From the IMG/VR virus record IMGVR_UViG_3300037153_000401, positions 1 through 54,555 of that record: a DNA stretch of 54,555 nucleotides; one strand, given 5' to 3'. A model generated the notes under the pieces. That model did no database searches and had not been told where the DNA came from. It worked only from the letters and a program-made list of their open reading frames with translations. This DNA comes from a virus. Below, piece by piece: positions 7,662-53,992 of the stretch. Made by a program: the position numbers and the translations under genes. Position 1 is the stretch's first letter. Each line of letters opens with the position of its first letter.

Positions 7662-8098
7662 AAGCGCCTGAAGCGCTGCCGAGGCGCATCTTTCTTGCCG
7701 GCAGCATCGAGATGGGGAAGGCCGAGAACTGGCAGGAGAGGGTTGTGCGCGACCTGTCGGACGTGCCGAATCTAACGATACTGAATCCGCGGCGCGACGA
7801 CTGGGACGCTTCATGGATTCAATCGATCGCCAACGCCCAATTCAGAGGGCAAGTCGAATGGGAGATCGTCGCGCAGGAGATGGCCGACAAGATTTTCATG
7901 TACTTCGCTCCGGACACCAAATCGCCGATCACGCTCCTGGAGCTAGGACTGTTCGCGCGGTCAGGCAAGTTGATCGTCTGCTGCCCCGATGGATTCTGGC
8001 GTAAAGGCAACGTCGAGGTCGTCTGTCATCATTTTGGCGTAAGGTATTTCGATGCGCTGGAAGCTGGGATTGCGCACTTAAGACGGTTCTTGCCGTAG
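7649..8098 (+). CDS. nucleoside 2-deoxyribosyltransferase-like protein
   Basis: A 149-residue protein with the family layout: FLAGSIEMG near the N-terminus (substrate loop), LNPRRDDWDASW, a central QVEWEIVAQEMAD helix, then SPITLLELGLFARSG holding the likely catalytic Glu, and CPDGFWRKGNVEVVC. Such proteins exchange bases on deoxynucleosides or act as nucleotide hydrolases; phage and bacterial relatives are often annotated DUF4406 or nucleoside 2-deoxyribosyltransferase-like. It suggests a role in nucleotide pools or modified bases, perhaps with the kinase upstream. The exact reaction is uncertain. Confidence 0.75.
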   Translation: MQEIKAPEALPRRIFLAGSIEMGKAENWQERVVRDLSDVPNLTILNPRRDDWDASWIQSIANAQFRGQVEWEIVAQEMADKIFMYFAPDTKSPITLLELGLFARSGKLIVCCPDGFWRKGNVEVVCHHFGVRYFDALEAGIAHLRRFLP

Positions 8099-8116
8099 CG
8101 ATATAACGGGAATTAT

Positions 8117-8971
8117 ATGAACCATTCGCAAGACGAAAACAAAGGATTTAGCGACGTGGATTTCTGGATCGCCGAATGGCTCAAGCCGACCGGCAAGCGC
8201 CGCAGCGAACACACCGCCCTCGCCTACCGGGCCGACGTGAAAGCGTTCCTGAAGCGCGCGGGAAAGCCATTCGACCAGGTCGAAGTCGCCGACCTGCAGG
8301 ACTACCAGTCTTACCTGGCCGACGAGTACGGCGCCGAGAAGACGCGCGCGCGGAAGATGGCCAGCGTCTGCAGTTTCTATCGCTTCTTGAACAATCGCGA
8401 GGTGACGGAGCTGAACCTGGCGCGGATTGAACGAACAAAGATAGATCGCTCAATCAATCACGATGAACTGCTCACGGTCGAACAGATCCGCGCCATCATC
8501 GCCGCTACGGCGGCTAATTCCCTGCACCACGCGCTACTCAAATTCCTCTACCTGACTGGCGTGCGGATCAGCGAGGCGCTAGGGCTTCGCTGGCGCGACC
8601 TACGCCAACTCGACGACGCCGGCGAGGCTCATATTCTCGGCAAGGGCGGAAAGAGACGTATGGTCTTTCTGCCAGCCGACCTATGGCGAGACCTGATGGC
8701 GCTGCGCGGCGCCGCTGATGATAAGGATCACCCCTTCCCTTTCTCGTCACAGAACGCTTGGAAGGTCGTAAAGAAGGCCGGCATCGCCGCTGGCGTCGCA
8801 GACGTTCACCCTCACCAGTTCAGGCACGCTTATGTGTCTCACCTGCTGGCAGAGAACGCGCCTCTGGCCGACGTGAGTGAGGCTGTAGGACACGCCAGCA
8901 TTGCAACCACAGGGCTCTACGCGCACCCGACGAAAGGGCGTGATTTGGCCTTAAAACTGAGCGCAGAATGA
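8117..8971 (+). CDS. tyrosine recombinase / integrase
   Basis: A 284-residue XerC/D-like protein. The N-terminal SAM-like core-binding domain covers residues about 10-105. The catalytic domain carries the full set: R150 (LTGVRISEAL), a beta-hairpin Lys near 176-179 (GKGGKR), H233-x2-R236-H237 (HPHQFRH), H259 (VGHAS) and nucleophile Y268 (LYAHP). It would cut and rejoin DNA through a 3'-phosphotyrosine, for prophage integration or dimer resolution. The gene closes the early plus-strand string, followed by the toxin-antitoxin pair. No excisionase was recognised. Confidence 0.9.
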   Translation: MNHSQDENKGFSDVDFWIAEWLKPTGKRRSEHTALAYRADVKAFLKRAGKPFDQVEVADLQDYQSYLADEYGAEKTRARKMASVCSFYRFLNNREVTELNLARIERTKIDRSINHDELLTVEQIRAIIAATAANSLHHALLKFLYLTGVRISEALGLRWRDLRQLDDAGEAHILGKGGKRRMVFLPADLWRDLMALRGAADDKDHPFPFSSQNAWKVVKKAGIAAGVADVHPHQFRHAYVSHLLAENAPLADVSEAVGHASIATTGLYAHPTKGRDLALKLSAE

Positions 8972-44593: not shown

Positions 44594-45991
44594 GTGCCGA
44601 GAGCCTTTCCCTCGACCAACCCAAATCACCTGTATTTTCAAAACGATAATTTCTACTCCTGTTGTGCCGAGAGCCTTTCCCTCGACCAACCCAAATCACG
44701 ATTCGGTTTGAATTCGAGCGCGAGCTCCTGCTCCTCAAGTGCCGAGAGCCTTTCCCTCGACCAACCCAAATCACGTCATTCACCGTAGAGCGACGTGTGA
44801 TCACTTCAGTGCCGAGAGCCTTTCCCTCGACCAACCCAAATCACCCGCACCACGTCAGCAATTGCAGGTAGTACCCACAAGGTGCCGAGAGCCTTTCCCT
44901 CGACCAACCCAAATCACCGGGGACACGGTGACACTGGTGACACTTCAGCCAAGTGCCGAGAGCCTTTCCCTCGACCAACCCAAATCACCTGAAGCGTGTT
45001 GGACAGAGTGGCGGCTGCGCGGCTTGTGCCGAGAGCCTTTCCCTCGACCAACCCAAATCACTTTTGCTGTTAATCTTTTCCGGGTCTACTCCAGTCTGTG
45101 CCGAGAGCCTTTCCCTCGACCAACCCAAATCACTCGGTGATTTCGATGATCCTATTTCCGAGTTCAACGTGCCGAGAGCCTTTCCCTCGACCAACCCAAA
45201 TCACCACGCCGAGTGAGATCAATTTGTTTCCAAGCCACTTGTGCCGAGAGCCTTTCCCTCGACCAACCCAAATCACTCATGGCTTCGTCCCCAATCAATT
45301 CCGCCGACAATGTGCCGAGAGCCTTTCCCTCGACCAACCCAAATCACGCAGAGCGAGGCGGGCAATCCAATACTGATCGAAGTGCCGAGAGCCTTTCCCT
45401 CGACCAACCCAAATCACTTTCATGAATTTCATCAACGGGATGGCTGAAACTACGTGCCGAGAGCCTTTCCCTCGACCAACCCAAATCACATCGAGTCCCA
45501 CAGTCGCCGCATAGCGTGCCGCGAGTGCCGAGAGCCTTTCCCTCGACCAACCCAAATCACCGTGACGCGCGGCTGATCAGGTTTGAACGTGTAGCGACGT
45601 GCCGAGAGCCTTTCCCTCGACCAACCCAAATCACCGGCTGGGAATTCCAGCGCGGCCGGCTGCTCGCTGTGCCGAGAGCCTTTCCCTCGACCAACCCAAA
45701 TCACCAGATAACTGTGGATTTGCTGGGTTGATTATTGTAAGTGCCGAGAGCCTTTCCCTCGACCAACCCAAATCACTTCAGGCCACGCAGGAACTGCCGG
45801 CGGTTCAAGGACGTGCCGAGAGCCTTTCCCTCGACCAACCCAAATCACAACTGTGGATTTGCTGGGTTGATTATTATAGTATCGTGCCGAGAGCCTTTCC
45901 CTCGACCAACCCAAATCACGGTGTTACCTTGGGATCGTCAGATACATTTCGGAATGTGCCGAGAGCCTTTCCCTCGACCAACCCAAATCAC
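44594..45991 (-). CRISPR. CRISPR array, 20 identical 36-bp repeats, 19 spacers
   Basis: Repeats start at 44594, 44664, 44739, 44809, 44882, 44953, 45026, 45098, 45169, 45241, 45312, 45382, 45454, 45525, 45599, 45669, 45741, 45813, 45884 and 45956; all 20 read identical. Spacers are 34-39 nt (mean about 35.7). On the minus strand the repeat starts GTGATTTGGGTT and ends CTCTCGGCAC; CGAG and CTCG arms form a hairpin 4 nt from its 3' end, typical of type V crRNA handles, so minus transcription is preferred. The array starts 5 bases after the effector stop. There is no AT-rich leader and no degenerate end repeat. Spacers 16 and 18 (45705-45740 and 45849-45883) share 27 nt. The 76 bases after the last repeat (44518-44593) hold no visible tracr anti-repeat. 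Confidence 0.99.
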
Positions 45992-45996
45992 TGCAA

Positions 45997-47727
45997 TTAC
46001 CCAACCTCAATCGCCATCTCACTTGCCGCCATAACTCGCACGTATCGCCGCAAATGATCAGGGATTTCGACCGGCGACGCGGAGATGCTTGCGCCGCCTT
46101 CTATCTCGCTGAGCAATAAACGACTTGTATTAACGTCGTTATCCTGTTTATGGCCGTTTTCGCACACGCGGAGGAGCTTGCGTCCCTTTTCGACCTTTCC
46201 GCCGCATTCAGAGCAGGTCTGCGTCGAATACGCCGCCTTGTGGTTCCGCAGCGCGCCTTTGTTTTTTGGATCAAGCTCCGGGTCGTGGCGAAACTTTTGC
46301 GCTGCCTGCTTGATTCGCTCCCGCAGATAATACTGCCCGACCAGCTGGCGATACTTCTGCGAGGGATCGCCCGCGCCTGCTTCCGCCATTTGCTTCAGCG
46401 ATAGGTCGCCTTCCCACGCCACGATATCAAAGCTGCGCATAATCCATGCCGCGACCTGCTTATAAACCTCTTCCTTCAACTGCGCGAATTCGAGTTCAAG
46501 CGCCCGCTTTTTGTGGTGAAGCCAGTCGATGATCAAGGCCAGTTTCCAAAGCAAACTTGCAGCTTCCAGGTCCGTCCCTTCCAACTTCTCGCGCAGGCGT
46601 TCAAGTCCGCCCTGACGCATCTTGGTAAAGCCCAGCATCGTTTGCCGCGCTTCCTCCGGCCACTGGTCTTTTTTGCGATCATAGATCGCCTTCAACGCTT
46701 GCTTGCAGTTTTCCACACAGTCCCCTGTTTGCTCGGACAGCAAAACCAATCGCCGAACGTCTTTCTTTTTGGGTTCAATGCATTTCTTATCTGCGCGACT
46801 ACTAAAGTCGAACGGCATGGCAATCTCGTAGGAATGGCCAGCATTGTCGGTGAGAACCCCCACTCTCACCCGATCACCCATTAGCCGCCATCCGCCCGAG
46901 TCGTAGCCCGCCACGCGGCCCGTCATCTCGCGTGGCAGATTAAGCGGGGGCATTTCAAGAGAAAATTGGATTTCGTATCTGTCTCGAAAGCCCCGCTCCG
47001 ACTGTCGCACCAATGTAACACGCTTAACTATCGCGTGCGGCGGCGGCAGTCTGTGTATGCTGACCAATAGCTTCAAGTGTCGCAGTTTTACATCGGCGCC
47101 CTGCGGCGTTTTCACTCGAAATTCAAGATTATGCTTAGCGCCCGGCGCCGCCTCCGGTAACCGATAAAGCGACACATTGCCGCCTTCGCCGTATAGATCA
47201 GCCCATGTCGTTTCTTGACCCGCCACCGCATTGAAATTAACCGGCAAATTCAAATTGAACTCACGATCGAGATATTTCGGCGACGGCATGCCCATTTCCC
47301 ATGAGGTATAGCCCTTGGCGGCCTTCGCCCGCTGGCGCCGCGCGGGCCATTCCTTCAGCGCCAACAGAAACCGATCCACCACGGCGTAATAACAATCGCT
47401 GGTTATTTGACCGCGATACTTCTGGCCGAACGCGCGCAGGAATTTTGTATCCTTGAATTGTTTTACTATCGCGTTTCGCGCATCTTGTTTAGCCTTTACG
47501 ACATCGTCGGGATCGCTACCGGCAATCCTGTGCGGCGCGACTTGGCGCTTTAATTCAAACGCCATGTCATTCCACAGCTGCCGTTGAAGCTCTTCGGTAG
47601 ACTTGATCCATGTCGGCATGTCGCCAACTACCTCGCACGCGAATGCCCATGCGCGAATCGGCCAATCGCGCAAGCGTTCGCGACGCGGCAGTTTCTGTTT
47701 CTTCTTTTCGGTGATCTGAATTTCCAT
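45997..47727 (-). CDS. compact type V CRISPR effector (Cas12-like, RuvC)
   Basis: ATG 47727 gives 576 residues; TTG 47733 is an alternative overlapping the upstream stop. The N-terminal half (1-265) is a helical/beta recognition region without recognisable motifs. The C-terminal half is a split RuvC nuclease: RuvC-I GYDSGGWRL (D276), bridge-like helices with W402-HHKKRALELEF, RuvC-II DIVAWEGDLSL (E439), a zinc finger CSECGG...CENGH (C505, C508, C522, H526, so CCCH) and RuvC-III KQDNDVNTSRLL (D529/D531). All acidic catalytic positions look present. The GxDxGWR-like element and length recall V-M (V-U1, Cas12m) effectors, but subtype is not proven. No cas1, cas2 or tracrRNA nearby; acts with crRNA from the adjoining array. 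Confidence 0.85.
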   Translation of the reverse strand: MEIQITEKKKQKLPRRERLRDWPIRAWAFACEVVGDMPTWIKSTEELQRQLWNDMAFELKRQVAPHRIAGSDPDDVVKAKQDARNAIVKQFKDTKFLRAFGQKYRGQITSDCYYAVVDRFLLALKEWPARRQRAKAAKGYTSWEMGMPSPKYLDREFNLNLPVNFNAVAGQETTWADLYGEGGNVSLYRLPEAAPGAKHNLEFRVKTPQGADVKLRHLKLLVSIHRLPPPHAIVKRVTLVRQSERGFRDRYEIQFSLEMPPLNLPREMTGRVAGYDSGGWRLMGDRVRVGVLTDNAGHSYEIAMPFDFSSRADKKCIEPKKKDVRRLVLLSEQTGDCVENCKQALKAIYDRKKDQWPEEARQTMLGFTKMRQGGLERLREKLEGTDLEAASLLWKLALIIDWLHHKKRALELEFAQLKEEVYKQVAAWIMRSFDIVAWEGDLSLKQMAEAGAGDPSQKYRQLVGQYYLRERIKQAAQKFRHDPELDPKNKGALRNHKAAYSTQTCSECGGKVEKGRKLLRVCENGHKQDNDVNTSRLLLSEIEGGASISASPVEIPDHLRRYVRVMAASEMAIEVG

Positions 47728-47729
47728 GT

Positions 47730-47987
47730 TCAATGTTCTCCTTTTTTATCCGCTTCTGTTTTCGGTCTGTAACTCGGATCGAAATCGGCGATGATGTACC
47801 GGCCCGTCTTTTCATCGAAATCAATCGCGCGCTGGTACGCGCCGTCAACCTCGATCAGCAGGGCATAACCTCGTTTCAACATATCCGAGATGATGCGTCT
47901 GGCGCGGATCGCTTCCGCCGCGTTGTCTTTGTCGAATGTGATTTCCACGTCTCCCTCGTAAACGTTAAGGATTGACAGCATTCCCAC
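47730..47987 (-). CDS. small conserved phage protein, 85 aa, coupled to the Cas gene
   Basis: GTG 47987 follows GGAGGG at 7 bases. The product is compact alpha/beta: MLSILNVYEGDVEITFDKDN, AAEAIRARRIISDMLKRGYA, LLIEVDGAYQRAIDFDEKTG, ending in DFDPSYRPKTEADKKGEH. It resembles small phage proteins of unknown role. Its stop (47730-47732) sits 2 bases upstream of the effector ATG, so it may drive effector translation by coupling. Whether it helps the CRISPR system is unknown. Confidence 0.65.
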   Translation of the reverse strand: MGMLSILNVYEGDVEITFDKDNAAEAIRARRIISDMLKRGYALLIEVDGAYQRAIDFDEKTGRYIIADFDPSYRPKTEADKKGEH

Positions 47988-48504: not shown

Positions 48505-49803
48505 TTAACCTCCTAAGGTAGGCAAAATCGCCTGTACTGACCCGTCATGCATCACTCGATCCGTGAGCATATCGCCGATCTCCTCGTCGCCTGACCAGCG
48601 ATTCGGCCAAGTGTTAGCCTCGATCAGTTCGAGAATCCGGCCGTGCTCTTCTTCATTGATCAGTTCTACGATTGGCCGCCCTTCCACGTGGGCCGCTTCG
48701 TTGATTTCATCCTGGATCTCAAGCACCTTTCTCAATCCAAACAACCTCGCCTCCAGCGTCAACGGCCCGAGGCGGCCGGGATTCTTCACCAGCTCACCAT
48801 TCGCCTTGGTTTCAATCCCCTTGCGGAGTCTCCATTGAGGCTTGGTCAGTTCGGCGTAAAGCGGTTTCAGGCGTTTGAACGGCGCGAGGTAAGACCAATG
48901 TGGGAGGCGCAGAATGCGATCGAGCGCTGTATCGCGGCTCGCCAGGTTGCAACCGACGCAGCCTGTGCGCCCGGCAAGTTCAATAGCATCGCCTTCCCTT
49001 TCGCCCTGGCCGTAGATTTCGGCGACCTGGCACGTCGGAAATCCGTGCTCGATAAATCCGTCGCGTGTGGTCATTCCCTCAAAGCCTAGCCAGTCGGCGA
49101 CGTGGCAGATTCGCCAGTGAAGAAGCGGCGCGAGCGTATCGGCGATCGCGCTCGGCGTCGTCTCCTGAAACCATCCCTGGCCACACTCGGCGCCGTCACG
49201 CGAACAGCTCATCACGATACGCTGATCTCGTGCAGCGCTTTCACCTAGACGGACGCCAGTCAGCATCAGGAGCTTTTCACCGGCCGCCTCGCGGAGAGAC
49301 TTCAACGCGTTGAGCATTGGCTCAATCTTCAGTTGTGGCGTACACCAGCGGAAACGGTTCTTCGGTGGCGGGACCCCGCGGCCGAACATATAGACGAAGA
49401 AACGATCATCCAGCTCAGGCGTCACGATCTGCGTCCGGAAGCCGCGGCGGCGACATTCGGCCAGGATCGTCAGGGCGGACGCCATCAACGGCGGTAGTTC
49501 CATTCGCGTATCGCTCATCAAGACGGTCAACGACTCTGGCGCTGGAATGTGCCCTGTGGCAATTAGTGACGCGATGGCCGTCACGGTCGCTGAAGAGTCT
49601 TTGCCGCCGCTGAACGCGATGGCCCAATGTTTGTAGCGCTCGCCATAGGCGCGGAGAGATTGCGCGGTCAGTTCCAGCGCTTCACCCTGCGTCATTCGCG
49701 CGCCTTCGAATAAGTTCTGATTTCTCACTTTTCCCCACCCTCCAAAATCGCCGAGCATAACGCTTGCGCCAGACCGACCTAATCGATCAATTTTTATCCG
49801 CAT
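48505..49803 (-). CDS. PAPS reductase-like PP-loop protein, 432 aa
   Basis: ATG 49803 is chosen, but the start is uncertain. The adenylate-binding PP-loop is AFSGGKDSSATV (64-75). Next come a long helical part, a basic RRRGFRTQIVTPELDDRF segment and TGCVGCNLASRD, a C-x2-C pair typical of PAPS-reductase-family proteins (CysH, DndC-like). The family moves sulphur using ATP or PAPS. Phage members are often linked to DNA phosphorothioation or tRNA thiolation. No dndB, dndD or dndE partners were seen, so the target is unknown. It lies two genes before the DNA methyltransferase in the order of the minus operon. Confidence 0.7.
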   Translation of the reverse strand: MRIKIDRLGRSGASVMLGDFGGWGKVRNQNLFEGARMTQGEALELTAQSLRAYGERYKHWAIAFSGGKDSSATVTAIASLIATGHIPAPESLTVLMSDTRMELPPLMASALTILAECRRRGFRTQIVTPELDDRFFVYMFGRGVPPPKNRFRWCTPQLKIEPMLNALKSLREAAGEKLLMLTGVRLGESAARDQRIVMSCSRDGAECGQGWFQETTPSAIADTLAPLLHWRICHVADWLGFEGMTTRDGFIEHGFPTCQVAEIYGQGEREGDAIELAGRTGCVGCNLASRDTALDRILRLPHWSYLAPFKRLKPLYAELTKPQWRLRKGIETKANGELVKNPGRLGPLTLEARLFGLRKVLEIQDEINEAAHVEGRPIVELINEEEHGRILELIEANTWPNRWSGDEEIGDMLTDRVMHDGSVQAILPTLGG

Positions 49804-50350
49804 TGAGGCGTGCCCAGGCGTCGAGTTTACGCATTCGATCAACAGCGCTACTCAATTGGCCCGTGCTATCCGTCAACGTATCCCCCGATGCGAGCAACTT
49901 CGTTCCCGCGTAATACCGTATCGTTGCTTCGGTTACCTTGCCGGTCAGGTCCGCGCTAATTTCAAGCGCCTCGCGATTGATCGCCGTCGCCTCCAACAGG
50001 TCCGCGCCGAGCATGACAGCCTCGGTCTGCGCTTCGCGTCGCTGCGAGGTGGCTATGTGATATAAAACTTCAATCCGATAATTCGTCGGCACGGTAGCCG
50101 CCGCCCGGGCCTTTACACCCTTGCTTGCCGCTTTTGCAGGCACATATAGCCACAATCTATAAACGCGAATTTTGTATAGGTCGCCATTTGCTTCATAGCT
50201 TTCAGTCTTAAAGCTATCGGGCTTACTGATCAATTCGATCTGCTCCTTCAGATCGTCAGCTTGTTTATTGACCTCGCGCCGTCGAGCGGTTTGCCCGAAC
50301 GCTGTTCCAGCCACTAACAACATTGTGATAAGCGTAAATACTCGAATCAT
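49787..50350 (-). CDS. secreted/periplasmic protein, 187 aa, unknown
   Basis: ATG 50350 follows GGGAGA at 9 bases. Residues 1-19 (MIRVFTLITMLLVAGTAFG) are a signal peptide. The mature part has basic and helical segments (DDLKEQIELISKPDSF, QTEAVMLGADLLEATAIN) and a polar end (RKLDAWARLNADKN). No Cys in the mature part. It is probably exported by the infected cell. Not a known family by eye. Confidence 0.6.
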   Translation of the reverse strand: MIRVFTLITMLLVAGTAFGQTARRREVNKQADDLKEQIELISKPDSFKTESYEANGDLYKIRVYRLWLYVPAKAASKGVKARAAATVPTNYRIEVLYHIATSQRREAQTEAVMLGADLLEATAINREALEISADLTGKVTEATIRYYAGTKLLASGDTLTDSTGQLSSAVDRMRKLDAWARLNADKN

Positions 50351-50453: not shown

Positions 50454-52286
50454 TTACTCCGATGAAAGAATCGCTGAGCACAGCGCCTGTGCGAGGCCGA
50501 CGGCCACGGCATTGCCGATTTGTTTGACCTTCTGCTCGCGATTACCAACGAAGTGGTAGGTCTTCGGGAAGCCCATCGCCATCGCGAGTTCGTGCGGCTG
50601 GAGCATCCTGAAATGGACATCAAGAAGCGCGATCTCCTCGCCCGGCTTCAATTCGGGAATGACCAGACCGAACCGATCCTTTCCGGTCACGGTGTCGAGC
50701 GGGTCGTCTATAGATTGCGCCCCGGCCGTGCCGTTATATTTCACGAGATAGGGCTGCACGAGACCGTGTGCGCCGCCCTTAGCCGTCGTAATCGTGTTCA
50801 GCGGTTTATCGATGGACCTCACGTGGCCGCCGTGTTCCATCGCCACAAGGAACGGCTGAACCAATCCGAGATGATCGCGGGTCACCACCGTGTTGAGTGG
50901 TTCGTCCGTGCTGCGTGGCGCGATGTCTCGGCCGCCCGAATTGATAATGAAGGGTTGGACAAGGCCAAAGTGGTTCGACGTGACGAGCGTCGGAAGCGGC
51001 TCGTCAACGCTGGCGTTGCGCTGGTCGCCGTCTTTGCGACCCTCGTGGTTCCCGTTGTAGCGGACTAAAAACGGCTGCGCCAGACCAAAGTGTTGACCAT
51101 TTGCCGCCAGCGTCCGCAATGGCTCATCAAGAGATTGCGCATCTGCGTTATTGCGCAAGACGACCAGAAACGGCCGACAAAGCGCGTGATGCATTCCTTT
51201 CGTGGTTATAGTTGACAGTGGCGCATCAATCGAGCGGGCGTCCTGACCGTTGCGCAGCTCAACGATAAACGGCTGAGCGAGGCCGTAATGCTCATAGTTG
51301 GCCGTGATCGCCGGCAGAGGCTCGTCAACGGATTGCGCGTCGTGCCCGCCGTAATACTTCACCAAGAAGAGTTGAATCAGAGCGCCCGCGCCATGCGAAG
51401 TGACCGCGGGGAGAGGCTTATCAATTGAGTGGTTTCGCGGCTTCTGCCCTTCGCGCTCGCCAAAGTTCGGTACGATGAAGGGCAGCCCGCAAAACTTCTG
51501 AAGTCCCGCCCAGATTCTGGCCAACGTGTTGGGACTGAGCGGTCTTTTGCGTGTAAAAATTGACTCGCTCGGGATCTCCCAATCAATGATATCGCGCGCG
51601 GGTCTATGCGGCTGCAGCTTCGGCATCTCGAAGAGCGTGCGAGTTCCATTGCCGTTCGTCTTCGCTTTCGACGCCGGCGCGTGCGTTGGCTCGGGCCAGC
51701 AGATCGCCTTCCGGCCGCGTCGAGCCTGGATAAACAATCGCTCTCGTGATGTCGGATCGCCGAAGTCGGCGGCGTTCAGAATGCGGTCTTCGACCGTGTA
51801 GCCGAGCGCGCGCAGGGCGTTCAGAAAAGCGAAGTACGTTTCACCGCGGCGCTTCTTTAGCGGCCGGCCGTTGACGCCGAGCGGCCCCCAGGTCCGGAAC
51901 TCTTTCACGTTCTCGATCAGGACGTGGTCAACTGTGATCTGTGAGCACCATTCGACAATGCGCCAGGCGCTCGCCCGGGATTGATCGTTGATCGGTTTGC
52001 CGCCTCGGGCGATTGAATGATGCGTACATTCCGGGCTCGCGACCAGCAGGTTGAGCCTGCCGCCTGGAACGATCGTTCGCGGATCTACGGACTCAAGAAG
52101 CGCGCACACGTGATCGGCCTCCGGATGATTCGCCGTGTGTGTGCTGATCGCGATCTCCCAGTGATTGACCGCGATCAGTTTCAGGTGAATTCCCTGCCGC
52201 TCGCAGGCTTGCCGCAGGCCGCTACTGGTCCCACCGGCGCCGCAGAAGAGATCAGCCGCAATGATTTGTTTTGACTTTCTCACCAC
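50454..52286 (-). CDS. dcm: DNA (cytosine-5) methyltransferase with eight internal repeats, 610 aa
   Basis: GTG 52286. C5-MTase motifs in order: I DLFCGAGGTSSGL (12-24), IV SPECTHHSIARGG (84-96; Cys87 nucleophile in an S-P-E-C variant of PCQ), VI LIENVKEF (123-130), VIII RERLFIQARRGRK (181-193), X IGNAVAVGLAQAL (590-602). It puts a methyl on C5 of cytosine. Between VIII and X (about residues 286-543) there are eight copies of a 30-40 residue unit built on S-x-D-x-P-L-x-T-x-T and GLxQPFLV. No restriction enzyme is adjacent. Probably for anti-restriction or regulation. Confidence 0.9.
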   Translation of the reverse strand: MVRKSKQIIAADLFCGAGGTSSGLRQACERQGIHLKLIAVNHWEIAISTHTANHPEADHVCALLESVDPRTIVPGGRLNLLVASPECTHHSIARGGKPINDQSRASAWRIVEWCSQITVDHVLIENVKEFRTWGPLGVNGRPLKKRRGETYFAFLNALRALGYTVEDRILNAADFGDPTSRERLFIQARRGRKAICWPEPTHAPASKAKTNGNGTRTLFEMPKLQPHRPARDIIDWEIPSESIFTRKRPLSPNTLARIWAGLQKFCGLPFIVPNFGEREGQKPRNHSIDKPLPAVTSHGAGALIQLFLVKYYGGHDAQSVDEPLPAITANYEHYGLAQPFIVELRNGQDARSIDAPLSTITTKGMHHALCRPFLVVLRNNADAQSLDEPLRTLAANGQHFGLAQPFLVRYNGNHEGRKDGDQRNASVDEPLPTLVTSNHFGLVQPFIINSGGRDIAPRSTDEPLNTVVTRDHLGLVQPFLVAMEHGGHVRSIDKPLNTITTAKGGAHGLVQPYLVKYNGTAGAQSIDDPLDTVTGKDRFGLVIPELKPGEEIALLDVHFRMLQPHELAMAMGFPKTYHFVGNREQKVKQIGNAVAVGLAQALCSAILSSE

Positions 52287-52651
52287 AAATCCCCCGTGTA
52301 GCGAAAGCCTTGGAATCCGCGCCTAGCGATCGGCTCCGGCGGGCGGCTAACAGGCCCCGTGCAAACCGCCCAGAACTTCGAAGTGCGGGTAACGCCGTCC
52401 CAGCATTTCAGCCGTAGCGCATCGCCACCCTTAACGTACTCGGCTATATTGAGTCTCACTTCGACCTTGCCCTCGACCAGCAGGTACATATGCAAGACAT
52501 CAGTCTTTGGCAGCGCCGGCAGGGCGATGTAAATCATCTCGACCTCGCCGCGATCCATGCCTTTAATCGAAGCCTCGTAGCGATCGCGGCCGACGTGGCC
52601 CGGTTCAAGGCTCGGCAGTGTGCGGATGATCCCAGTCGGACGTTCTTTCAC
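52280..52651 (-). CDS. small phage protein, 123 aa, unknown
   Basis: It overlaps the methyltransferase start by 7 bases and the preceding gene by 4. Mixed beta domain (VEMIYIALPALPKTDVLHMY, LLVEGKVEVRLNIAEYV) with one Trp/Cys-rich segment (CWDGVTRTSKFWAVCTG) and a basic end. It may bind the modified or hemimethylated site; unproven. Confidence 0.5.
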   Translation of the reverse strand: MKERPTGIIRTLPSLEPGHVGRDRYEASIKGMDRGEVEMIYIALPALPKTDVLHMYLLVEGKVEVRLNIAEYVKGGDALRLKCWDGVTRTSKFWAVCTGPVSRPPEPIARRGFQGFRYTGDLW

Positions 52652-53562
52652 TGAACTACCTCCGGGAAAGCACTATATTCGACGCCGTCGAGCAACCGCC
52701 CAGCAACCTTCTTCCCGACGCGAAACATCGAGGCTACGCTGCCGTTGTGATCCAGGTTCTGGCCTGCCGTGCTGACCTTCGAAGCTACGATCCACTCCGG
52801 CGACGAAGCGTCGTAGTTGCTCGGCCACCACTCGCCATTCTGTTTGTGGAAGTAAGCCACGTGGGCGTCAAGACACTGGTCACGAAGGGCGCGAAACCAA
52901 TCCGGATGAGACGGTCTCGCGTTCGGGCCGGATTCCCCGCCTGTGATCACCCAATTCACTCTCGGATCAGCGCACCAGCAAGTTGACGGATCAAGACAGG
53001 ATTCGCATCGCAAATAGCGAGATACGTCTATCGGTCCGAGTAGCGGCTCGCAGCTTAGGAATCGAACAACGGCCGGAATCTTGAGCAATTCAGGAATCCG
53101 CTTGTCGGCCATTTCCTGATTCTCGACCGTTGTCCCCAACCAGACGTGGGGCCACATATCGGCGTCCGGCGCGATCCAGTCGTGCGGCCATAACCGCACG
53201 ATGTTCTCTGGACGCTTGGTGAGGAGAAGCCAGTCAAGCGCTGGCGTGTCAGCGATAAGCGAGAACAACTCGTATCGCCATTTGCGTAGCTCCTCGCGAT
53301 CCTCGAAAACATCAGCCAGGCTCGCGCAGAACACGCGCCGGCGCTCTCCCGATTTCTCTGCCTCTCGGTTCCATATCAACGGCTCTCGCCAATAACTCTC
53401 GCTCGTTCGGCGACGCTTAGCCTGATCGCCCCACTGGACGAGGCCCGAGCGCTTCGCCCAGGCCTCGGCATAGCAGTTAGCGCAGGCCGATGAGACCTTG
53501 CTACAACCCAGCCAGGGATTCCAAGAATGGTGACACCATTCGATCTTAGAATTTGCGCCCAT
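52648..53562 (-). CDS. DUF5131 (phage Gp37/Gp68-like) protein, 304 aa
   Basis: ATG 53562 follows GGGAGA. N-terminal IEWCHHSWNPWLGCSKVSSA then CANCYAE gives Cys at 10, 20, 27 and 30, a cluster like that of radical-SAM or Fe-S proteins, and the start SKIEWCHHSWNPWLGC is the DUF5131 hallmark. Later segments WLLLTKRPENIVRLWP, VWLGTTVENQEMADKRI, FLSCEPLLGPIDVS and NWVITGGESGPNARP are the same family. Biochemistry is unproven; a radical-SAM fold is suspected. It is common in phages and in mobile islands, and may modify DNA bases or tRNA. Confidence 0.85.
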   Translation of the reverse strand: MGANSKIEWCHHSWNPWLGCSKVSSACANCYAEAWAKRSGLVQWGDQAKRRRTSESYWREPLIWNREAEKSGERRRVFCASLADVFEDREELRKWRYELFSLIADTPALDWLLLTKRPENIVRLWPHDWIAPDADMWPHVWLGTTVENQEMADKRIPELLKIPAVVRFLSCEPLLGPIDVSRYLRCESCLDPSTCWCADPRVNWVITGGESGPNARPSHPDWFRALRDQCLDAHVAYFHKQNGEWWPSNYDASSPEWIVASKVSTAGQNLDHNGSVASMFRVGKKVAGRLLDGVEYSAFPEVVQ

Positions 53563-53992
53563 CGCATTCTCCCTTCTCACCACGTTCCAAAGTCCGCAGC
53601 GTCGCGAGCGCGGCTTCCATCGCCGCGTTCTCCCCTTCGATCCTGTTTTTAGCCTCTTCCAGTTGGGCGGCCCCGATGAGATGCGACATAAGCGCGTGAG
53701 CGCGCGGGTGATGCGCGCGGCGCATCTTGATCACGCTCTCGACGGCCTTGATCTGATCGGCGAGTGTGATTTCAGCCACGTGACGCGGCTTTTCTTCGGT
53801 GAGCGCAAACACCGGATCATGTTTGGCCATATGTTTTAGCCCGCATGCCTCGCAGGGTCTGGCGGGATTCGCCGCGCTCGTGTCGCCGCCGAAGCAGCCG
53901 CACGCGGGCAGCAGGCAATCGTCATTGGGCGTTACCAGCCAATGGCGATTACAAATCGGGCAAGTGCTTTCGCCTGCATTCATCTCAGCCAT
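53546..53992 (-). CDS. zinc-finger protein, 148 aa
   Basis: ATG 53992. Two or three zinc sites in the first 60 residues: CPICNRH, CLLPACGCFGG and CEACGLKHMAKHD. The second part is helical (LADQIKAVESVIKMRRAHH). 8 bases overlap with the next gene. Possibly nucleic-acid binding; unknown. Confidence 0.55.
   Translation of the reverse strand: MAEMNAGESTCPICNRHWLVTPNDDCLLPACGCFGGDTSAANPARPCEACGLKHMAKHDPVFALTEEKPRHVAEITLADQIKAVESVIKMRRAHHPRAHALMSHLIGAAQLEEAKNRIEGENAAMEAALATLRTLERGEKGECDGRKF

What the first reader, a model, noticed from the sequence alone, without database searches (positions are those of the whole stretch)
50454..52286. C5 methyltransferase with eight ~30-40-residue internal repeats
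Between motifs VIII and X (residues about 286-543), where the target-recognition domain sits, a unit built on SxDxPLxTxT and GLxQPFLV occurs eight times. Typical phage or bacterial C5-MTases carry far fewer. The repeats may be swappable recognition modules or a beta-solenoid, giving several specificities or new target binding. Motif IV is S-P-E-C rather than P-C-Q.
Basis: partly seen in the sequence, partly recalled or inferred. Interest (0 to 1): 0.75.

Follow-up and report, generated by a model that had tools for sequence, protein, structure and literature searches.

The report
Phage cytosine methylase with eight swappable modules
This viral gene encodes a DNA-methylating enzyme whose target-reading part is a row of eight related 33-residue modules that relatives gain, lose and swap one at a time, so it probably shields the phage from several restriction enzymes at once, as a few Bacillus phage enzymes are known to do.

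Summary
The 610-aa C5-cytosine methyltransferase (minus strand) has an intact catalytic core and eight ~33-aa units between motifs VIII and IX. A profile built without this protein finds all eight (27-45 bits; best of 1000 shuffles 5.7). The enzyme belongs to a very widespread, generically annotated family in phages, prophages and plasmids. I examined 167 relatives and found 3-11 detected units each.

Four results support recognition modules. (1) Each unit is a paired loop1 + SxDxPLxTIT + loop2, and the two loops co-vary within a unit. (2) The same unit types recur in distant proteins at different positions. (3) A protein almost never carries one type twice: 3 cases against 26±4.6 expected. 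(4) Enzymes 94-97% identical in the catalytic domain differ by clean one-unit insertions, deletions or replacements.

Best explanation: one catalytic core served by several tandem target-recognition modules, giving several specificities against host restriction. This is the principle known from Bacillus phage multispecific methyltransferases, with more modules and visible cassette exchange. Not shown: methylation, the targets, or how many units work. Sequence homology to known recognition domains is only suggestive, and AlphaFold does not resolve the repeats. SPEC at motif IV is family-wide (P-D/E/T/S-C), not a defect. Verdict: new variant of a known kind.

The parts
50454..52286 (-). Complete C5-cytosine DNA methyltransferase gene (610 aa, GTG start)
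   Evidence: PF00145 E 2.7e-31, TIGR00675 E 1.3e-29, phrog_116 matching residues 4-609
51483..52286 (-). Catalytic part, residues 1-268: motif I DLFCGAGG, motif IV SPEC (catalytic Cys87), motif VI ENV (Glu125), motif VIII RER (Arg181, Arg183)
   Evidence: D12, C87, E125, N126, R181 and R183 invariant in 60 relatives; AlphaFold pLDDT mostly above 90
51363..51464 (-). Unit 1, residues 275-308, loops NFGEREGQ | SHGAG
   Evidence: HMM 27.3 bits; type found in 11 proteins
51264..51362 (-). Unit 2, residues 309-341, loops KYYGGHDA | NYEHYG
   Evidence: 39.9 bits; type in 4 proteins
51165..51263 (-). Unit 3, residues 342-374, loops ELRNGQDA | TKGMHHA
   Evidence: 39.7 bits; type in 20 proteins; matches unit 4 of L001
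51066..51164 (-). Unit 4, residues 375-407, loops VLRNNADA | ANGQHFG
   Evidence: 40.1 bits; same cluster as unit 3; matches unit 3 of L001 (order reversed relative to unit 3)
50946..51065 (-). Unit 5, residues 408-447, loops NHEGRKDGDQRN | TSNHFG
   Evidence: 37.5 bits; type in 7 proteins
50847..50945 (-). Unit 6, residues 448-480, loops NSGGRDIAP | TRDHLG
   Evidence: 40.0 bits; type in 4 proteins
50745..50846 (-). Unit 7, residues 481-514, loops AMEHGGHV | TAKGGAHG
   Evidence: 45.4 bits; type in 16 proteins including phiH Dcm5
50646..50744 (-). Unit 8, residues 515-547, loops KYNGTAG | KDRFG; last unit, a type usually found next to motif IX, probably fixed or structural
   Evidence: 28.5 bits; type in 51 proteins, usually last
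50457..50645 (-). Residues 548-610: motif IX (RMLQPHEL) and motif X (QIGNAV, Asn592)
   Evidence: aligns with HhaI 258-309 and with DNMT1/MET1

Best explanation
This is a phage-type orphan C5-cytosine DNA methyltransferase with an intact AdoMet-dependent core. Its single recognition domain is replaced by a tandem array of about eight small, homologous recognition modules. Each ~33-aa module consists of a strand (FLV), loop 1, a framework (SxDxPLxTIT), loop 2 and a strand (GLVxP). Loops 1 and 2 together probably read one short target, as the two recognition loops of the M.HhaI domain do. The core serves whichever module has engaged its site, so one enzyme methylates several sequences and protects the virus against several host restriction enzymes. 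The last module (DRFGLV type) is nearly constant and may be structural or a default specificity. Modules are gained, lost and replaced one at a time, and redundant copies are avoided. Shown: the repeat array, the intact core, the unit boundaries, loop covariation, recurring types, one-unit swaps and avoidance of duplicates. Inferred: that units are target-recognition domains, that they act independently, that methylation occurs, and the anti-restriction role.
For: Eight units confirmed by an independent HMM. Core residues invariant in relatives. Unit count varies 3-11 in 167 relatives, spacing median 34 aa. For pairs of units in different proteins with similar loop 2, the preceding loop 1 is far more similar than expected (0.352 against a null of 0.133+-0.008, maximum 0.167, with loops permuted inside each protein). 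The following loop is only slightly more similar (0.205 against 0.154+-0.007). This sets the module boundary. 25 recurrent types hold 278 of 403 units from 70 non-redundant proteins. The same type occurs twice in a protein 3 times against 26.1+-4.6 expected (minimum 13 in 2000 permutations), and the deficit holds in both clades; order of shared types is concordant 450 times and discordant 106 times. Single units are replaced or inserted between near-identical neighbours, for example L064/L056 against L144 unit 3 and L077 against L078. 45 of 64 gaps of at least 10 aa between close relatives are 28-45 aa long. The repeat framework resembles the TL segment upstream of motif IX in classical enzymes; the best HMM hit of several Bacillus/Streptococcus phage enzymes, and the hhalign hit, fall on 'EPxFT(L/V)xxxDRHGV'. 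Precedent: one enzyme arraying several recognition domains in Bacillus phages (PMC12707154). Found in hundreds of phage and plasmid records.
Against: Matches to characterised recognition domains are below significance on their own (best 4.9 bits, E 0.26; hhalign P 0.087). AlphaFold resolves the core but not the repeats, and in a 3-unit relative only the last unit reaches fair confidence. I found no member with an experimentally determined specificity. Halovirus phiH1, whose Dcm5 has seven units, showed no detectable modified base in an HPLC study cited in PMC6210493, though that method could miss rare sites. Motif IV lacks the usual Pro before Cys. The relatives examined are the best hits to a repeat-bearing query, not an unbiased census.
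Confidence: 0.72

Rival explanations
1. Only one or two units contact DNA (probably the last one, next to motif IX). The rest are a repetitive scaffold or beta-solenoid with a non-recognition role such as stability or protein binding.
For: The last unit is the only one predicted with fair confidence in the 3-unit relative, and its DRFGLV loop is nearly constant. Repeat number varies freely.
Against: A neutral scaffold should not conserve loop pairs across distant proteins, avoid duplicate types, or have whole units replaced between near-identical neighbours. AlphaFold shows no solenoid.
Confidence: 0.15
2. The units jointly read one longer site, each contacting a sub-site, like a TALE or PUF array.
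For: Tandem homologous units with hypervariable loops.
Against: An array code needs the same unit type to be reused within a protein, but duplicates are strongly avoided (3 against 26 expected). There are far more types than bases, and single-unit insertion between otherwise unchanged neighbours would shift the register.
Confidence: 0.05
3. The protein is a decaying or inactive methyltransferase; the altered motif IV (SPEC) means that it binds but does not methylate, or transfers another group such as carboxymethyl.
For: Pro before the catalytic Cys is missing. The structural neighbours include the C5-carboxymethyltransferase structure 8yf3. No modified bases were detected in phiH (PMC6210493).
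Against: P-D/E/T/S-C is family-wide with Cys conserved, and all core residues are invariant. Motif X keeps the Asn (Asn592) that CmoX replaces with Arg350 (PMC12783734), so ordinary SAM use is expected.
Confidence: 0.08

Closest known systems
Multispecific C5-methyltransferases of Bacillus temperate phages (SPbeta, phi3T, rho11s, H2, SPR) and M.phiBssHII
   Same: Phage-borne C5-methyltransferase with several recognition domains in series between motifs VIII and IX, a module size in the 30-40 residue range (the ~38-aa domain size is from my own knowledge), one catalytic core, and a presumed anti-restriction role (review PMC12707154; PMC8936443).
   Different: Here the units are clearly homologous to one another with a shared framework, there are eight (up to 11 in relatives), and single-unit exchange and duplicate avoidance are visible. 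The whole-protein profile match is strong (hhalign 99.7%), but SPbeta MtbP gives no significant hit to the repeat HMM and has the classical PC motif IV. Specificities here are unknown.
Classical single-domain C5-methyltransferases (M.HhaI, M.HaeIII, DNMT1)
   Same: Same fold and motifs; motif IX/X aligns with HhaI 258-309; top structural matches.
   Different: One recognition domain instead of an array; motif IV PCQ instead of P-x-C.
Domain movement (DOMO) of recognition domains in Type I/IIG specificity subunits of Helicobacter pylori
   Same: Recognition domains flanked by conserved repeats move between positions and change in number (PMC3077401).
   Different: A different enzyme class with two half-site domains; here it is a single-chain C5-methyltransferase with many small modules.
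CmoX, phage DNA cytosine C5-carboxymethyltransferase
   Same: Phage C5-methyltransferase fold (8yf3).
   Different: CmoX has SPPC and Arg350 in place of HhaI Asn304; this protein has SPEC and keeps Asn.

Membership tests
C5-cytosine DNA methyltransferase (PF00145) | Motifs I, IV (Cys), VI (ENV), VIII (RxR), IX and X in order | tested here: met
   PF00145 E 2.7e-31; core residues invariant
C5-cytosine DNA methyltransferase (PF00145) | Pro-Cys dipeptide in motif IV | tested here: not met
   SPEC; the family has P-D/E/T/S-C with Cys kept, so a family variant rather than a loss
C5-cytosine DNA methyltransferase (PF00145) | Transfers methyl to cytosine C5 of DNA | not testable with these tools
   needs expression and LC-MS or bisulfite sequencing
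Multispecific (multi-TRD) C5-methyltransferase | Several recognition modules in tandem between motifs VIII and IX | tested here: met
   eight units in that interval; modular behaviour
Multispecific (multi-TRD) C5-methyltransferase | Units homologous to characterised recognition domains | tested here: inconclusive
   best hits fall on SPbeta-type recognition segments but are sub-significant
Multispecific (multi-TRD) C5-methyltransferase | Methylates more than one distinct target, each abolished by mutating one module | not testable with these tools
   no specificity data found for any member
C5-carboxymethyltransferase (CmoX) | Arg in place of HhaI Asn304 in motif X | tested here: not met
   Asn592 present, G591 and N592 invariant in 60 relatives; criterion from PMC12783734
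Beta-solenoid repeat protein | Confident regular solenoid of the repeats | tested here: inconclusive
   repeats pLDDT mostly below 50, no solenoid

The most novel reading that the evidence does not exclude
The family is a natural plug-and-play library: each ~33-aa cassette (loop 1 + loop 2) is an autonomous, portable recognition domain for one short target. Phages collect up to about eleven in one enzyme and update the set by cassette exchange to match the restriction enzymes of their hosts. A unit-to-target code could then be read off and used to build programmable 5mC methyltransferases.
Probability: 0.45. Interest if true: 0.75.

Novelty: new variant of a known kind. Interest (0 to 1): 0.58.

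Why it matters
Multispecific methyltransferases have been known since the 1980s, mainly from a handful of Bacillus phages. This family appears to apply the same principle in hundreds of phages, plasmids and prophages of bacteria and archaea, under the bare label 'DNA methyltransferase'. Many natural module combinations, including near-isogenic pairs that differ by one unit, make the module-to-sequence code directly testable. If confirmed, a phage's module set would be a readable record of the restriction systems it faces and a source of small portable recognition domains.

Tried and rejected
AlphaFold on the full protein with 60 relatives: good core, unusable repeats. On a 3-unit relative: only the last unit fair. 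Foldseek returned the expected C5-methyltransferases and said nothing decisive about the units. A whole-unit similarity test for repulsion between units of one protein was confounded by framework similarity: 160 similar pairs against 98 expected at the loosest cut-off. The loop-based type test replaced it. A direct HMM hit to SPbeta recognition domains was not significant. A carboxymethyltransferase was considered and rejected because Asn is kept in motif X. A TALE-like code is disfavoured by duplicate avoidance. The 1988 and 1996 EMBO J papers on Bacillus multispecific enzymes are not in the library; they are cited through reviews. The Burkholderia, Acinetobacter and lactococcal phage papers gave nothing on repeats or multiple recognition domains beyond a reference to the Bacillus phage enzymes.

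Full report
WHAT IS THERE. The window is an IMG/VR virus record (G000). The gene at 50454..52286 (-) encodes a 610-aa protein with no internal stop. It is a C5-cytosine DNA methyltransferase (PF00145 E 2.7e-31; TIGR00675 E 1.3e-29; phrog_116 matching residues 4-609). Core residues D12, C87, E125/N126, R181/R183, R560/M561 and G591/N592 are invariant in an alignment of 60 relatives, and AlphaFold models the core with high confidence. Between motifs VIII and IX lie eight units beginning SxDxPL at 287, 319, 352, 385, 426, 459, 491 and 525. An HMM trained on other proteins finds all eight (27.3-45.4 bits; best of 1000 shuffles 5.7). The units are 27-61% identical to one another.

MOTIF IV. SPEC is real. 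In the family the pattern is P-D (84), P-E (about 40), P-T (16) or P-S (12) before Cys, with the Cys kept in the 154 of 167 proteins that the simple pattern caught. It is a lineage trait, not a sign of decay.

A WIDESPREAD FAMILY. tblastn finds relatives in 417 phage records, 294 with at least 80% of the query in one place, all below 60% identity, and in 493 plasmid records, 190 of them at least 80% covered. These counts include classical enzymes at the low end. In the 167 best relatives that I extracted, the number of detected units is 3 to 11, mean 6.8, spacing median 34 aa. They were selected as best hits to a repeat-bearing query, so this is not an unbiased census.

WHAT A UNIT IS. Reading the relatives side by side showed that the loop after the FLV strand (loop 1) and the loop after TIT (loop 2) travel together, for example AMEHGG with TAKGGAHG, GQQSG with KGAIS, and NFGEREGQ with SHGAG. 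Quantified on 70 non-redundant proteins: for interior units in different proteins with loop-2 similarity above 0.6, the preceding loop has mean similarity 0.352 (null 0.133±0.008, maximum 0.167, loops permuted within each protein) and the following loop 0.205 (null 0.154±0.007). The unit of inheritance is therefore loop 1 + SxDxPLxTIT + loop 2.

A SHARED LIBRARY OF TYPES. Clustering 403 units gave 104 clusters. The 25 clusters with at least four members hold 278 units. All eight units of this protein fall in such clusters (units 3 and 4 in the same one), which also contain proteins from other lineages. The DRFGLV type usually stands last. The same type occurs twice in one protein 3 times, where position-stratified shuffling predicts 26.1±4.6 (minimum 13 of 2000); the deficit holds in both halves of the family (2 against 13.3, 1 against 16.9). 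Order of shared types is concordant 450 times and discordant 106 times. Against the nearest relative L001 (nine units) the order of units 3 and 4 is reversed.

EXCHANGE IN PROGRESS. Between enzymes with 94-97% identical catalytic domains, individual units are about 35% identical or less while neighbours are 90-100% identical: L064 or L056 against L144 (unit 3), L085 against L165 (units 1, 4, 5). In other pairs exactly one unit is inserted or missing, for example L077 against L078 (32 aa), L121 against L129 and L007 against L145. Of 64 alignment gaps of at least 10 aa among 37 close pairs, 45 are 28-45 aa.

LINK TO KNOWN RECOGNITION DOMAINS. The last unit and motif IX/X align with HhaI 258-309 just after the region of its conserved TL dipeptide (the TL and recognition-loop assignment in HhaI is established knowledge, not tested here). 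SPbeta MtbP, a known two-specificity enzyme (own knowledge), was retrieved. The repeat HMM's two hits on it fall at its two T-L/V sites, below significance. In Streptococcus phage relatives the best hit is the segment EPMFTLTSQDRHGV (4.9 bits), and hhalign's best place is the SPbeta equivalent (P 0.087). Whole-protein profile comparison gives 99.7%, carried mostly by the catalytic core. Homology to bona fide recognition domains is likely but not demonstrated.

MECHANISM. [quoted passage not shown] Duplicate avoidance and one-unit exchange are what selection for distinct specificities would produce, and what neither a scaffold nor a TALE-like code predicts. I therefore favour independent modules served by one core. 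How inactive modules move aside is unknown. AlphaFold does not resolve the repeats.

CAUTIONS. Halovirus phiH1 carries a seven-unit homologue (Dcm5; unit count), yet an HPLC study cited in PMC6210493 detected no modified base. Rare site-specific 5mC could have been missed, or the enzyme may be silent. No member with a measured specificity was found. The library holds open-access papers only, so an existing description may have been missed. CmoX-type carboxymethylation is unlikely because the motif X Asn is kept.

VERDICT.

Noticed in passing
window 44595-45991 and 45997-47733 (-): A virus-borne CRISPR array of 20 copies of a ~36-nt repeat (GTGCCGAGAGCCTTTCCCTCGACCAACCCAAATCAC) at ~72-nt spacing, next to a 578-aa compact Cas12 effector matching Cas12m in the PDB (E 1.4e-8) and PADLOC Cas12u1 (E 1.1e-15). 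RuvC residues and spacer targets were not examined.
   Followed up: partly
window 48505-49842 (-): Phage PAPS-reductase-like protein (phrog_12882 E 3.8e-143) with similarity to the DndC phosphorothioation enzyme (PADLOC E 2.4e-30), close to the methyltransferase.
   Followed up: no
window 52648-53583 (-): DUF5131 protein that also matches PADLOC candidate defence models PDC-M30B and PDC-M41B. The related contig L001 has a protein resembling it (shared C-terminal GGES...HPDWFR segment) at 7882-8940 near its methyltransferase.
   Followed up: no
   Followed up: no
phiH1 dcm5, L004:2986-4872: The intact halovirus Dcm5 is a seven-unit member; an older record splits it into dcm5a and dcm5b.
   Followed up: partly
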